In this document: in pieces, positions 22,684 to 28,931 of the stretch
Numbering within the stretch: position 1 is the stretch's first letter
Layout of the letters: each line of letters begins with the position of its first letter
Assembly (NCBI GenBank): GCA_030765605.1
Contig: JAVCCG010000109.1
Location: 1 to 64,000, forward strand
Direction of reading: 5' to 3'
Length of the DNA stretch: 64,000 nucleotides
Origin: Candidatus Alcyoniella australis
Lineage (GTDB): Bacteria > Lernaellota > Lernaellaia > JAVCCG01 > Alcyoniellaceae
Program-made: the position numbers and the translations under genes
The notes under the pieces: model-generated
Seen by the model: only the letters and a program-made list of their open reading frames with translations
Told to the model about the DNA's origin: nothing
Databases searched by the model: none

Positions 22684-23844
22684 ATGGAACTGCGTCGCGA
22701 GACTTTACTAAACAGCGGTGCGGACAATGCGATGTACAACATCGTCTTGCTTCCCGACGGCTACACCGAGCTCGAGCTGCCGCAATACATCAAACACTGT
22801 TGGGAGTTCGTACGCGGCCTAAGCGAGCTGCCGTGGTTCAGCACCCTGCAAAACGCGATCAACATTCATGCACTGCTGATTCCCTCGGCGCAATCCGGGG
22901 CCGGCGAGGGCGACGCGCGGGACACGCCGTTCGGCGCACATTACGGTGAGATGATCGAGGGCGGCGTCAAGCGGCTGATTGAAATCAACGATCAACGTGC
23001 GATTCAAATCCTCGAGCAGGAGCTGTCGCAGTGGAACGCCGCGATGGTCGTGGTCAACGGTCACCAGATGGGCGGATCCGGGGGCACAAAGCGGAACCAA
23101 TCGTCGCCGAACAAACGCGTGGCAGCTGCCGCGGCAGTGGCCAACTGGCTGCCGGTGGCAATGCACGAGCTGGGCCACTCCGCGTTCGGCCTGGCTGACG
23201 AATACGATTCGGCCATCCCCGACGCCCCGGACAACATCGAGGACTATCCCAATGTCACCGCGGAGGTCCGGCGCGAGCGGATCAAGTGGCGCCGCTTCAT
23301 CGAAGCCGACACACCGCTACCCACGCCGCTGGATCTGGGGTTCGCCGATCGGATGCTGGTCGGGCTGTTCGAGGGCGCGTTCTACCGCACACATGGGGTC
23401 TTTCGGCCCACGCGAATCTGTGCAATGAGTACGCTTTCCAAGACCATCCCCTTTTGCCGTGTGTGCATGCAGCGCATCATCGACACGCTACGGCCGCACT
23501 TCAGCTCGCGTCCGGCCCTGGCCTGCGATGCGCATCTGCTCAGCACCGCCTATCGGCTCTCCCCCCGGCTCGAGCTGTGCAACGTGGGCAACGTCCCGGT
23601 CAAAAACATCGAGGTTCGCGCGTTCGAGGCCGAGTTAGACCAAGACAAGCTGCTCAAGTCTGACGTCAAAGCGGACAAACGCTTCAAGGCGTTGTTCAAA
23701 TCACCGCACGCCTCATTGCAATCTGACGAACGTCTTTTCGTGGATCTGCAGTTCGCCGATCTCAACTCCAGCCCCGACTACGGCTGCCTGACCTTCTACA
23801 GCGACGCGGGTGAGCTCGACGTGTTTTTAGAGGTTTGGGCATAA
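22684..23844 (+). CDS. Peptidase M64-family zinc metalloprotease
   Basis: A 386-aa protein with the M64 (IgA-peptidase-type) zinc motif HELGHSAFGLADEYD (residues 161-175), where the two His, the Glu and the trailing acidic residues fit the family. MYNIVLLPDGYTELE near the N-terminus is also typical. No obvious signal peptide, which is unusual for M64 members that are generally exported. The C-terminal 100 residues form a separate beta-rich domain; its last 35 residues recur, degraded, at 24537-24632. RBS GGAG lies 7 nt before the ATG. Confidence 0.82.
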   Translation: MELRRETLLNSGADNAMYNIVLLPDGYTELELPQYIKHCWEFVRGLSELPWFSTLQNAINIHALLIPSAQSGAGEGDARDTPFGAHYGEMIEGGVKRLIEINDQRAIQILEQELSQWNAAMVVVNGHQMGGSGGTKRNQSSPNKRVAAAAAVANWLPVAMHELGHSAFGLADEYDSAIPDAPDNIEDYPNVTAEVRRERIKWRRFIEADTPLPTPLDLGFADRMLVGLFEGAFYRTHGVFRPTRICAMSTLSKTIPFCRVCMQRIIDTLRPHFSSRPALACDAHLLSTAYRLSPRLELCNVGNVPVKNIEVRAFEAELDQDKLLKSDVKADKRFKALFKSPHASLQSDERLFVDLQFADLNSSPDYGCLTFYSDAGELDVFLEVWA

Positions 23845-24536: not shown

Positions 24537-24632
24537 GAAGACGTACTGTTAGCCGATTTCAACCCCGTCCCAAACGACAGTTGCCTGACGTTCCTCTGCG
24601 ACTCGGGCGAGCTCGGCGTGCTCGTTCAGTTT
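24537..24632 (+). pseudogene. Remnant of an M64 peptidase gene 3' end
   Basis: In the frame starting at 24519, the translation EDVLLADFNPVPNDSCLTFL.. aligns with the last residues of the M64 peptidase (ERLFVDLQFADLNSSPDYGCLTFY..), sharing LxxADxN, CLTF, D-SGELxV/DAGELDV and a hydrophobic end. Nucleotide similarity is also apparent. Only about 32 codons survive, without the catalytic domain and without a matching stop. It lies beyond the VapBC-type pair, at the border of the AT-rich island, and looks like what is left of a second M64 gene or of a partial duplication. Confidence 0.6.
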
Positions 24633-24704
24633 TTATGTGGAACAATTACCTTTACTCGGAATAGTAGACAATCCTTTACTTTATTTTATTATCATTTATA
24701 ATTC

Positions 24705-24731
24705 TTGACATACTATTTTCAAAGGTATAAT
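24705..24731 (+). promoter_or_regulatory. Consensus sigma-70 promoter of the AT-rich island
   Basis: TTGACA (24705-24710) and TATAAT (24726-24731) both match consensus exactly with a 15-bp spacer, in front of the 522-aa gene. The start site would fall near 24738, giving a leader of only about 14 nt that contains AGGGG before the ATG at 24752. Confidence 0.65.
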
Positions 24732-24751
24732 ATTATTTTTAGGGGTGTTCA

Positions 24752-26320
24752 ATGTTATTTCATGATGAAACAATTGATGGACTTATAAGCCAAAATGATT
24801 CCGTCGACGCTTTCATTCATCTTATTTATAATGATTTCTGTGGTAACCTGAACATTCTAGATATTAGCCCCGATGATAAGTGCCTTATCGAGGAATTCAT
24901 TAAGGTCACGAATGATCATGGCCTTGATTATCCTCAATTCAATGAATTGCTGCTGCTATTAAATCAGAAACGTATTTCGGAAGGCTTCTTTCACTTTCTT
25001 TTCAACGATAGATTGTCTAACATTGAAGATCTTAAAAACGGCATCATTAGTTTCCGAGGATTTGCCTTCTTGTCTTTTGGTCAATTTTTTAATGCGTTCG
25101 AACATCTACGAAATCTAACCTTGACCCAATTACAAGAAAGATTGAAGCCTTTTAGTACACCACGACATCAAATAGAACATTCTTTTAAAACAAGACATGA
25201 TAAAGTTTTAAAAATAAAAAGAATTGACAAGTCGCTCGTATATTACAATGGATTTATCACAAAAGAGCACTATACAAGGGAAGCGAAGCTATTAAAACAA
25301 TTTTTAGAAGAGCGTAGATCGCTAGGCGATTATGGTGTATCGCCTATAGATTTAGAAAAAGAATACAACATTATTGGAAAGGACATTGAGCTGACAGAAA
25401 AAACTGCAAAGCAAAATACAGACATTTATCTCACGTGGGATTTTCTAGATATTTACATATCTACTTCCATGAGACAATCTTGGGAATTCCGTGAAACATA
25501 TGAGTTTATTGACAACCTATTTTCTTCTTCTGCATTATCTGATCTCAATCTTAGATATTTTGATCCAACACAGTCACTGTGTCTTAATAGAATTGACAAA
25601 GGATTAATCGAAGGCCTAATGTTAAAAAGGGCATCATGCAATATATACATGGTTCAAGAATTCGACACAATGGGAAAAGATTCCGAATTAGCTGCAACGC
25701 TTGCCCAAGGTAAGCCAGTAATTGCATATGTTCCTCAAATACAAGACCTAAAACAATTCAATAATAAGATCATAGGCTACCCATTAGACTATCATTATCA
25801 TCGATGCATTGAAATGCAAACTCAAAGCAAGGCACTTGATAAAGATTACGAAAAAGAAATGATTTCAAACGGCTGCGATGCTAGCCTAGTTGATGATTTC
25901 ATCACTCTTTATTTGGAACATCGAGATAAATACCCTTTTTCGCTTTATAGAAAAGACCGTGAAATATTTCTCAACCGCTACGATAATTTTAGCCAATTAT
26001 GTACAGCTATCTCCATTTTTTCAAAACACATGTATGACAAACGTGCTAAAACATTAAAAAGCATTCATCCATTATCTGTGCAAATCCACCTTGAGTCCGG
26101 TGTTGCAAATGGAATCCTTGTAGTTCGGGACCCAGACACCTGCTCAAAATTGCTCCGAAAAATATTATTAAATGACTTGGAATTCCAAACAGAGTATGTC
26201 GGCAAAAAACCAAATGGGGTGTGGGCATTGACAGAAACTATTTCTGGCTGTCCATTCCGTGTTGTCACAGAAAATCGTCGTTTGACTAACTCATTTTGGA
26301 ATTTCTACTTGAATTCGTAG
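24752..26320 (+). CDS. AT-rich island protein with TIR/nucleoside-deoxyribosyltransferase-like domain (candidate defence effector)
   Basis: A 522-aa soluble protein, strongly AT-rich against GC-rich neighbours, so probably acquired. Residues 1-220 are helical and unrecognised. Residues about 222-330 resemble Rossmann-like domains of the TIR/nucleoside 2-deoxyribosyltransferase kind: DIYISTSMR (233-241), LNLRYFDPTQSLCLNRIDKG, then FDTMGKDSELAATLAQGKPV (catalytic-type Glu at about 312 in DSELAATLAQGKPVIAYVP). Such domains hydrolyse NAD or nucleotides in several anti-phage systems. Residues 330-522 hold no family I know. It has its own consensus promoter and a small gene downstream. Defence function is inferred from domain type and island setting. 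Confidence 0.7.
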   Translation: MLFHDETIDGLISQNDSVDAFIHLIYNDFCGNLNILDISPDDKCLIEEFIKVTNDHGLDYPQFNELLLLLNQKRISEGFFHFLFNDRLSNIEDLKNGIISFRGFAFLSFGQFFNAFEHLRNLTLTQLQERLKPFSTPRHQIEHSFKTRHDKVLKIKRIDKSLVYYNGFITKEHYTREAKLLKQFLEERRSLGDYGVSPIDLEKEYNIIGKDIELTEKTAKQNTDIYLTWDFLDIYISTSMRQSWEFRETYEFIDNLFSSSALSDLNLRYFDPTQSLCLNRIDKGLIEGLMLKRASCNIYMVQEFDTMGKDSELAATLAQGKPVIAYVPQIQDLKQFNNKIIGYPLDYHYHRCIEMQTQSKALDKDYEKEMISNGCDASLVDDFITLYLEHRDKYPFSLYRKDREIFLNRYDNFSQLCTAISIFSKHMYDKRAKTLKSIHPLSVQIHLESGVANGILVVRDPDTCSKLLRKILLNDLEFQTEYVGKKPNGVWALTETISGCPFRVVTENRRLTNSFWNFYLNS

Positions 26321-26362
26321 GGTCATCAATGATAGCCTTTTAGAAAAGGGAGGAAACAGCCG

Positions 26363-26569
26363 ATGAACGACAAGAAATGGTCGCCATACAACGATACCTT
26401 TCAATCGGGGACGAACAAGCACAATTGGGGCGAGGATTTCTCCTGCCTTATTGACCGAAACGCGCGAGCAGAACTTCACGCTGTTGCTTGTAAAATTAGA
26501 AACAATCCTGAAGAAGGAACAACAAGTCAAGCAAACCGTAATTTGCACAATCCATTTGATAATGATTGA
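26363..26569 (+). CDS. Small 68-aa protein downstream of the island effector
   Basis: A 68-aa hydrophilic protein (MNDKKWSPYNDTFQSGTNKH... to HNPFDND) with a strong GGAGG 9 nt before the ATG. It lies 42 bp after the 522-aa gene on the same strand and before a likely terminator, and its composition is less GC-rich than the surrounding genome. No domain recognised. As the only companion of the effector-like gene it might be a partner, inhibitor or an independent passenger. Confidence 0.55.
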   Translation: MNDKKWSPYNDTFQSGTNKHNWGEDFSCLIDRNARAELHAVACKIRNNPEEGTTSQANRNLHNPFDND

Positions 26570-26584
26570 CGTTAAGTTTCGGTC

Positions 26585-26624
26585 ACTTTAGGCACAATAC
26601 TTTTTAGGCTTAAAGTAGTTTTCC
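26585..26624 (+). terminator. Probable terminator closing the AT-rich island
   Basis: ACTTTAGGC (26585-26593) pairs with GCTTAAAGT (26608-26616) with one mismatch, followed by AGTTTTCC. The loop is T-rich. It stands between the small island gene and the convergent crotonase gene and could serve as a weak intrinsic terminator. Confidence 0.45.
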
Positions 26625-26625
26625 T

Positions 26626-27452: not shown

Positions 27453-28931
27453 TCACTCGCAGCAGCCGTCGTCGTCGTCATCGTCGTCGGACGCCGCGTC
27501 GTCGTCGTCATCATCGTCATCGGACGTGTCGTCGTCGTCGTCATCGTCGTCGTCCGCAGGGTCGTCGATGAACGGCGCGTCCGGGAACGGTCCCGGGCCG
27601 GGCAGCACGCCGTAGTACACGCCGAGCCAGTAGGCGACCATGTAATCCTGGCCGTGGCCCACCAATGTCGGGTCGTCGCCCCGGGTGCACTCGATGTGGT
27701 ACGGGCTGACCTCCCACAGGCACGAGGTCCAGCAGCGGTCCTCGATCTGGTGCGCCTCCGCGGTCTGGGGGTCGAAGTCGACCAGCTCGTTGAGCCAGGG
27801 GATGCCGGCCAGGAACTCGTCGGCCCAGACCGAGAACGGGTCCAGCGGCAGCTCCGGACAGGTCACGGCCCGGCAATAGTTGGGCGCCTCGTTCATCACG
27901 GTCACGGTGTGCAGACCGTCCTCTTTCAAATAATCGAGCTCGGCCGGATCGCAGCCGCCGATGCGTAAACACGCGCCGTAATGCACCGCGTCGAAGAACG
28001 TGTTGTGGGTGTTCTCCACCAGCGGCCGCACGTTGACGGTGTAGACCTCCCAGAGGAACTCGCAACGCTCGCGGTCGGGCCACAGCCGGAACAGCGCGTT
28101 CCACACCGGGTGGCTGTTGATGAACCCGTAGTAGTCGAAATATTTGTTGAAAAACGAGAAGGTCGCGATCCAGATTAGATCCTGGTTGCGCTCGTACTCG
28201 TAGTCCAGCAGGCTCCAGAAATATTGGTCGTCGGTAATGTGGGCGGTTTGCAGGATTATCGCCAGCCGCGTGGTGGGCAGGATTTGGGCCGCGACGTTCA
28301 CATCGCCCCAGGGGTCGATGATGGTCCAGTCGTTGGCCTGCAATGTCAGCAGCACGTCGCGGAAATCATCGCGGATCGTGGCGCGCATCTGCTCGTCCTC
28401 CACCGCGTCGTAGGCCCAGGTCAGCGACCAGAACCACGAGATGTACTTGTCGCGCACGTTGTGGCCCAGCCAGAAGTAGTCCGCGTACTCGCCCTCGCCC
28501 TCGTAGCGGTTCTCGTGCCCCAGGGGGTACTCGACGTTCCACGGCGGCGCGTCGATCCCCACATAGCGCGCCAGATAGCCCGGGTCCTGGGTCACCGCAT
28601 GCACCAGGTGCAGATAGTCGGCCATGCGCAGCACCTCGGAGCGGGCTGTCTCGTCGCCGGTGACCATGTAGTTGATCGCCTGGCTGGTGAGGTAAAACGC
28701 GGTCCAGTCCTCGCTGTCGCCCGCACCCCTGGTGCGCAGCAGCTCGGTGCGGGTCGCGTCGGTGAAGACGAGGTCCGAAACGCCGCCCAGGCCCGTGGAC
28801 TGCCAGGTGCGAATCCACTCTTCGTAGTCCAGGGTCTTCTGCTCCAGGTACGGATCGAAGTCCTCGGCCGCTGCGCTCAAGGCGCATAGAGTCAGCGCCA
28901 AACAGATCAGAATGGACAGGGCACGTCGCAT
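27453..28931 (-). CDS. Secreted protein with C-terminal Asp-rich tract (paralog of 6347-7888)
   Basis: A 492-aa protein with a cleavable signal peptide (about residues 1-22, ALSAAAEDF), no lipobox. The Trp/Tyr-rich helical body matches the lipoprotein at 6347-7888 (DSEDWTAFYLTSQAINYMVT, NVRDKYISWFWSL, TIRDDFRDVL, TFSFFNKYFDYYG, GHGQDYMVAYWLG). The last 40 residues are Asp runs separated by single A/S/T residues and end GCCE. Thus the same domain carries its acidic tract at the opposite end. Possibly a calcium-binding or spacer element; molecular function unknown. Located directly upstream of the crotonase gene, but a shared role is not evident. Confidence 0.78.
   Translation of the reverse strand: MRRALSILICLALTLCALSAAAEDFDPYLEQKTLDYEEWIRTWQSTGLGGVSDLVFTDATRTELLRTRGAGDSEDWTAFYLTSQAINYMVTGDETARSEVLRMADYLHLVHAVTQDPGYLARYVGIDAPPWNVEYPLGHENRYEGEGEYADYFWLGHNVRDKYISWFWSLTWAYDAVEDEQMRATIRDDFRDVLLTLQANDWTIIDPWGDVNVAAQILPTTRLAIILQTAHITDDQYFWSLLDYEYERNQDLIWIATFSFFNKYFDYYGFINSHPVWNALFRLWPDRERCEFLWEVYTVNVRPLVENTHNTFFDAVHYGACLRIGGCDPAELDYLKEDGLHTVTVMNEAPNYCRAVTCPELPLDPFSVWADEFLAGIPWLNELVDFDPQTAEAHQIEDRCWTSCLWEVSPYHIECTRGDDPTLVGHGQDYMVAYWLGVYYGVLPGPGPFPDAPFIDDPADDDDDDDDDTSDDDDDDDDAASDDDDDDDGCCE

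What the first reader, a model, noticed from the sequence alone, without database searches (positions are those of the whole stretch)
24700..26625. AT-rich accessory unit: TIR/deoxyribosyltransferase-like protein plus a 68-aa partner, candidate anti-phage system
Seen: a sharp drop in GC, an exact-consensus promoter, a 522-aa protein with a Rossmann-like domain bearing SMR...W, LRYFDPTQS and DSELAATLAQGKPV, a small ORF with strong RBS and a terminator-like hairpin, all next to a VapBC-type pair. Known: TIR and deoxyribosyltransferase-like domains supply NADase or nucleotide-cleaving activity in several defence systems. The 220-residue N-terminal and 190-residue C-terminal regions match nothing I know, so they may be a new sensor arrangement.
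Basis: partly seen in the sequence, partly recalled or inferred. Interest (0 to 1): 0.8.

Follow-up and report, generated by a model that had tools for sequence, protein, structure and literature searches.

The report
Glycosidase-like enzyme with tiny disordered partner
A horizontally acquired two-gene unit encodes an uncatalogued enzyme built around a nucleotide- or NAD-cleaving type of domain, followed by a tiny floppy protein that travels with it across bacteria and archaea; it is probably a self-poisoning defence or toxin-antitoxin module, but no activity has been tested.

Summary
A 35% GC unit sits in a 61.5% GC window and encodes a 522-aa protein and a 68-aa protein. The large protein has no usable match in Pfam, NCBIfam, PADLOC, PHROGs or PDB sequences. 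It founds a family found here in 67 genome loci from at least 16 phyla, including Asgard archaea, with patchy, mixed phylogeny. AlphaFold (pLDDT 93) gives a central nucleoside-deoxyribosyltransferase/DNPH1-type domain between two unmatched regions. Tyr235, Glu287 and Glu312 are invariant in 58 of 58 members and match the spacing of the DNPH1 catalytic residues; the profile is nearer deoxyribosyltransferases than TIR. The 68-aa ORF has no BLAST relative, yet 29 of 36 family members without a helix-turn-helix have a similar 45-70 aa ORF directly downstream, against 48 of 364 control genes. Many carry a short P-[YT]-[DE]-L-[ST] motif, and close pairs show purifying selection. The XRE-fused subfamily lacks it (1 of 17). 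Best reading: a glycosidase/NADase effector with a small disordered inhibitor, in a toxin-antitoxin or abortive-infection module. The fold and the pairing are well supported; defence and inhibition are inferred. A tethered AlphaFold model did not dock the partner.

The parts
24705..24731 (+). sigma-70-like promoter, exact TTGACA and TATAAT with a 15-nt spacer
   Evidence: only exact pair in the window, 0 in 100 shuffles; spacing computed
24752..26320 (+). 522-aa DRHyd (deoxyribosyltransferase/DNPH1-like) protein, P0001
   Evidence: ORF; family alignment A2 of 58 members; AlphaFold pLDDT 93, pTM 0.92
24752..25444 (+). N-terminal helical region (residues 1-231), conserved in the family, no known match
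   Evidence: conserved G31, F79, R148, G167, N222, Y226
25445..25735 (+). central Rossmann-like DRHyd domain (residues 232-328) with Y235, S239-M240-R241, E287, T306 and E312
   Evidence: Foldseek to NDT, DNPH1, MilB, TIR, ThsB; hhalign; invariance
25685..25687 (+). codon of Glu312, the predicted nucleophile
   Evidence: 58/58 invariant; aligned with the NDT catalytic Glu
25988..26317 (+). C-terminal alpha/beta domain (residues 413-522) with the H439-P440-L441-x-x-Q444 motif, no known match
   Evidence: no PDB or viral fold match
26348..26353 (+). ribosome-binding site GGGAGG of the small gene
   Evidence: sequence; detected
26363..26569 (+). 68-aa predicted disordered partner, P0002, with WSPYND and HNPFDND motifs
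   Evidence: positional and motif conservation; disordered in the AlphaFold fusion
26585..26616 (+). terminator-like hairpin followed by a T-rich stretch
   Evidence: 9-bp stem, -9.4 kcal/mol

Best explanation
The unit is a horizontally acquired two-gene effector/partner module. SHOWN by computation: the large protein belongs to an uncatalogued, widely scattered family with a DRHyd-type (deoxyribosyltransferase/DNPH1-like) domain whose catalytic-type residues are invariant, and a small ORF is conserved directly downstream in the clade without a helix-turn-helix. INFERRED: the large protein cleaves an N-glycosidic bond of NAD+ or of a 5'-phosphorylated nucleotide through a glycosyl-Glu312 intermediate, with Y235 and E287 as helpers; T306, at the position of the DNPH1 phosphate serine and not of the Asp of true deoxyribosyltransferases, suggests a phosphorylated substrate. 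INFERRED: the small disordered protein holds the enzyme inactive through one or two P-[YT]-[DE]-L-[ST] motifs; infection or stress releases it, and NAD+ or nucleotide loss stops growth. In the XRE subfamily a fused helix-turn-helix replaces the partner, probably for self-regulation.
For: Fold: high-confidence model; central domain matches NDT 7o62, DNPH1, MilB, MyD88 TIR and ThsB at probability 0.9-1.0, although E-values are only 0.15-1. hhalign of the core: NDT E 2e-4 over 97 columns with E312 on the catalytic Glu; TIR 0.15; response regulator 0.2; TIR-versus-NDT positive control 7.5e-5. Residues: Y235, E287 and E312 are 58/58 and T306 57/58, against DNPH1 Y24, D80, E104, S98, I29, R30 (PMC10603095); true NDTs have Asp at the -6 position. 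Partner: 29/36 against 48/364 control genes (Fisher 4e-17), motif 24/36 against 2/364, XRE clade 1/17; out-of-sample L146 and L149 carry it; four close partner pairs have dN/dS 0.04-0.25; P0002 has SPYN (shuffle p 0.0006) and two P[YF][DN] (p 0.0005). Mobility: phyla mixed on the tree, patchy presence, AT-rich island. Neighbours include restriction-modification, pAgo, Cas1, AbiEii and PD-T4-6 genes.
Against: No activity is known. Foldseek E-values are weak on their own. Neighbours also include 5'-nucleotidase, ribonucleotide reductase and deoxynucleoside/thymidylate kinases plus ordinary genes, and no background rate was measured. The tethered AlphaFold model left the partner disordered (pLDDT mostly 33-44, one helix about 62) and undocked. 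The motif regular expressions were drawn from the same loci, and the statistical version was loosened to admit P0002. The family is absent from plasmids and nearly absent from viruses.
Confidence: 0.5

Rival explanations
1. Same enzyme, but the small protein is an activator, adaptor or infection sensor rather than an inhibitor; the enzyme is inactive until the partner (or a phage protein that captures it) triggers oligomerisation, as in trigger-activated TIR-like NADases.
For: The effector gene is first in the operon and the partner second; the partner is disordered with one or two repeated short motifs, suited to bridging subunits; retron-Eco1 NDT-like effectors act as filaments (PMC12887533) and Swarozyc is switched on by phage portal protein (PMC13174449).
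Against: The XRE subfamily does without the partner, which fits loss of a regulator better than loss of an obligate activator; not decisive.
Confidence: 0.25
2. Nucleotide-pool sanitation or salvage: a DNPH1/MilB-like hydrolase removing modified nucleotides, with no role in conflict.
For: Closest residue pattern is DNPH1; some neighbours are 5'-nucleotidase, NRDD, dNK and thymidylate kinases.
Against: Very sparse presence (about 0.3-2.6% of sampled genomes per phylum, seeds included), mixed phylogeny, large extra domains, partner protein, XRE fusions.
Confidence: 0.15
3. A ligand-sensing regulator: the DRHyd domain binds a nucleotide and the protein controls transcription.
For: 18 of 58 members carry an XRE helix-turn-helix; related SLOG and DRHyd domains include non-catalytic sensors (PMC9503650).
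Against: Catalytic-type residues invariant in all members, both with and without HTH; the window protein has no recognised DNA-binding domain.
Confidence: 0.08
4. The 68-aa ORF is a chance ORF and the system is one gene.
For: No BLAST relative in any locus; no Pfam match; 13% of control genes also have an ORF of that size downstream.
Against: Positional and motif enrichment, out-of-sample confirmation, purifying selection in relatives, strong RBS.
Confidence: 0.05

Closest known systems
Nucleoside 2-deoxyribosyltransferase (PF05014) and DNPH1/MilB nucleotide N-glycosidases
   Same: Rossmann-like fold, Y/acid/E residue pattern and spacing, catalytic Glu in the G-x-x-x-E...GKPV segment
   Different: Below detection by PF05014; large N- and C-terminal regions; Thr instead of Asp at -6; Glu instead of Asp as the presumed acid; small partner protein; scattered distribution
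Type II retron effector (retron-Eco1 NDT-like NADase)
   Same: NDT-like effector domain in a conflict system
   Different: No reverse transcriptase in the whole genome of the window, no Rfam hit nearby
TIR NADases (Thoeris ThsB, SARM1) and DUF4062/Swarozyc TIR-like NADases
   Same: Same wider TIR-DRHyd-SLOG class (PMC9503650); ThsB and TIR appear among the fold matches; single catalytic Glu
   Different: No TIR_2 or DUF4062 hit in any of 58 members; hhalign to TIR not significant; no ThsA or phage-portal sensor recognised
Type II toxin-antitoxin modules with disordered antitoxins (for example MazEF, RES-Xre NADase)
   Same: Two-gene operon, small partly disordered partner; a branch uses an XRE domain
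   Different: Order effector first; 522-aa multidomain effector; partner has no DNA-binding domain and no known antitoxin family; neutralisation untested

Membership tests
Nucleoside deoxyribosyltransferase / DRHyd superfamily | Rossmannoid fold of the deoxyribosyltransferase type | tested here: met
   Top Foldseek hits are NDT, DNPH1, MilB and TIR with probability 0.9-1.0, E 0.15-1; hhalign E 2e-4 to NDT
Nucleoside deoxyribosyltransferase / DRHyd superfamily | Pfam PF05014 match above its cut-off | tested here: not met
   No hit in 58 members; the PF05014 search of the own genome found two other genes, not this one
Nucleoside deoxyribosyltransferase / DRHyd superfamily | Catalytic Tyr, acid and Glu | tested here: met
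   Y235, E287 and E312 invariant; spacing -25 for the acid against -24 in DNPH1. The Asp-to-Glu equivalence is by spacing only
Nucleoside deoxyribosyltransferase / DRHyd superfamily | Glycosyl-transfer or hydrolysis activity | not testable with these tools
   needs biochemistry
TIR domain | TIR_2 profile match, or profile-profile similarity to TIR | tested here: not met
   (E 0.15)
Retron type II system | Reverse transcriptase in the operon | tested here: not met
   No PF00078 match in the whole genome
DUF4062 / Swarozyc | DUF4062 profile match | tested here: not met
   No Pfam hit at E 0.01 in 58 members
Type II toxin-antitoxin module | Two-gene operon with a small partner conserved at the same position | tested here: met
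   29/36 against 48/364 control genes
Type II toxin-antitoxin module | Partner binds and neutralises a toxic protein | tested here: inconclusive
   Tethered AlphaFold model shows no docking; toxicity not testable here
Known anti-phage defence system (PADLOC catalogue) | Match to a defence protein model | tested here: not met
   Window proteins: none. Other members match mostly models of HTH regulators, plus isolated weak hits

The most novel reading that the evidence does not exclude
A previously undescribed, prokaryote-wide conflict system in which a DNPH1-like nucleotide or NAD glycosidase is controlled by a 45-70 aa disordered protein that is conserved only as a short P-[YT]-[DE]-L-[ST] motif, and in which one branch swapped that partner for a fused XRE DNA-binding domain.
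Probability: 0.4. Interest if true: 0.75.

Novelty: new variant of a known kind. Interest (0 to 1): 0.6.

Why it matters
The family is missing from the Pfam, NCBIfam, PADLOC and PHROGs collections searched, yet spans bacteria and archaea, with invariant catalytic-type residues and two conserved regions of unknown fold. Its partner is invisible to BLAST and recognisable only by position and a short motif, so similar small regulators may be missed widely. If the enzyme cleaves NAD+ or nucleotides under partner control, it adds a branch of glycosidase immunity outside TIR, retrons and DUF4062.

Tried and rejected
Direct protein searches of viral contigs, plasmids and phages with the window protein found nothing. 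The genome scan succeeded only with alignment A1, whose rows 2 and 3 are hand-made variants of the real core used to widen the patterns; its hits were confirmed by tblastn against the real sequence, and all conclusions rest on real sequences (A2). A first automatic look for a conserved neighbour and a BLAST of the 68-aa protein were negative, and I nearly rejected the partner; reading the immediate downstream ORFs reversed that. A first profile-profile run used wrong strands and was discarded (corrected). Retron: rejected. The tethered read-through fusion (stop codons read as Gly, a device only; P0002 is in frame with P0001) gave no docking. VapBC as part of the unit: rejected on GC and strand. 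The Pfam TumE match (E 0.036, below cut-off) and the sorting-nexin PDB match (E 0.03) are treated as chance.

Full report
OBSERVATION. The stretch 24630-26625 is 35.7% GC in a 61.5% GC window and is its lowest 1.5-kb region. It holds the only exact TTGACA/TATAAT pair in 64 kb, with a 15-nt spacer, a 522-aa ORF (24752-26320), a 68-aa ORF (26363-26569) behind GGGAGG, and a 9-bp hairpin followed by T-rich sequence. VapBC next to it is 63% GC on the opposite strand and looks like host background.

FAMILY. The 522-aa protein has no usable match in Pfam, PADLOC, NCBIfam, PHROGs or PDB sequences. A widened query found 67 loci in the genome collection, 51-72% identical over the core for full matches. 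Rows 2 and 3 of that query alignment were hand-made search aids, and hits were confirmed against the real sequence. Fifty-eight near-full-length proteins align from end to end. They come from at least 16 phyla, including Asgard archaea; phyla are mixed on the tree. Presence is patchy: matches in 5/392, 3/396, 1/400 and 6/228 sampled genomes of four phyla, seed genomes included, and 1/98 relatives, the window's own genome. It is absent from plasmids and nearly absent from viral contigs. Eighteen members carry an N-terminal XRE helix-turn-helix and form one well-supported clade.

ENZYME DOMAIN. AlphaFold with the family alignment gives pLDDT 93 and pTM 0.92. Foldseek places the middle region on deoxyribosyltransferase, MyD88 TIR, DNPH1, MilB and ThsB with high probability but modest E-values. 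Profile comparison, with a response-regulator negative control and TIR-versus-NDT as positive control, favours deoxyribosyltransferase (E 2e-4) over TIR (0.15) and aligns E312 with the catalytic Glu. Y235, E287 and E312 are invariant; T306 sits at the -6 position, where DNPH1 has its phosphate-binding Ser98 and true deoxyribosyltransferases have Asp; S239-M240-R241 follow Y235 at the spacing of DNPH1 I29-R30 after Y24 (PMC10603095). I infer a glycosidase acting on NAD+ or a 5'-phosphorylated nucleotide. The N-terminal and C-terminal regions, including the invariant H439-P440-L441-x-x-Q444, match nothing.

PARTNER. BLAST finds no relative of the 68-aa protein. Yet directly downstream of the HTH-less members lies a small ORF again and again. 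Counting ATG-started ORFs of 45-70 aa that start from -10 to +170 nt of the stop: 29/36 in the main clade, 1/17 in the XRE clade, 2/9 in outlying clades, 48/364 for control genes in the same loci; with a motif 24/36 against 2/364. The motifs fall into PYDLS-like (often twice) and PT[DE]LTWE[DE]-like groups that align on P-[YT]-[DE]-L-[ST]. The regular expression was fitted to the same set and loosened for the window protein, so the independent evidence is: two new members found later, L146 (SPYDP...SPYNP) and L149 (PTELTFED); purifying selection in close partner pairs (dN/dS 0.04-0.25 in four pairs; the near-identical pair L011/L014, 0.9, is uninformative); and shuffles of P0002 itself (SPY[DN] p 0.0006; two P[YF][DN] p 0.0005). 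The strict motif P[YT][DE]L occurs in 12/30 partners against 14/1528 control ORFs, but P0002 carries only a relaxed form (SPYND, NPFDN). The partner reads as disordered in the AlphaFold fusion and does not dock, so binding is unproven.

CONTEXT. Neighbours within two genes include D12 methyltransferases, type IIG enzymes, pAgo, Cas1, AbiEii and PD-T4-6, but also 5'-nucleotidase, NRDD, deoxynucleoside and thymidylate kinases and ordinary genes. Without a background rate this is suggestive only. No reverse transcriptase exists in the genome, so this is not a retron.

VERDICT. A DRHyd-superfamily enzyme by fold and residues, though below the PF05014 profile, plus a real small partner. Toxin-antitoxin-like or abortive-infection function is the leading inference (0.5); activation rather than inhibition by the partner is the main rival (0.25).

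Noticed in passing
24548-24620 against 23751-23823: A 73-bp fragment, 77% identical (E 7e-12), of the 3' end of the M64 peptidase gene lies beyond VapBC, as if VapBC or the island had been inserted next to a duplicated or replaced gene end.
   Followed up: partly
L041, L049, L053: By reading the translations, three XRE-fused family members have a D12-class adenine methyltransferase-like gene as immediate neighbour; three neighbours in that set match the D12 family.
   Followed up: no
L040:9646-11103: A protein that reads as TIR-domain by its N-terminal sequence overlaps the end of the family gene, at the place where other members have the small partner.
   Followed up: no
L045:771-1076 and L063:1871-2191: Two related ~105-aa proteins are encoded directly upstream of an outlying pair of family members; a different conserved partner.
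   Followed up: no
L003:8152-9081: A 5'-nucleotidase (PF06189, PADLOC candidate PDC-S08) lies directly upstream of the family gene on the same strand.
   Followed up: no
L002 (IMG/VR contig IMGVR_UViG_3300034062_008862): The only viral-collection contig with a member (478 aa, small motif ORF 3 nt downstream); whether it is truly viral was not settled.
   Followed up: no
27453-28931: The 492-aa protein on the minus strand ends in long poly-Asp runs.
   Followed up: no
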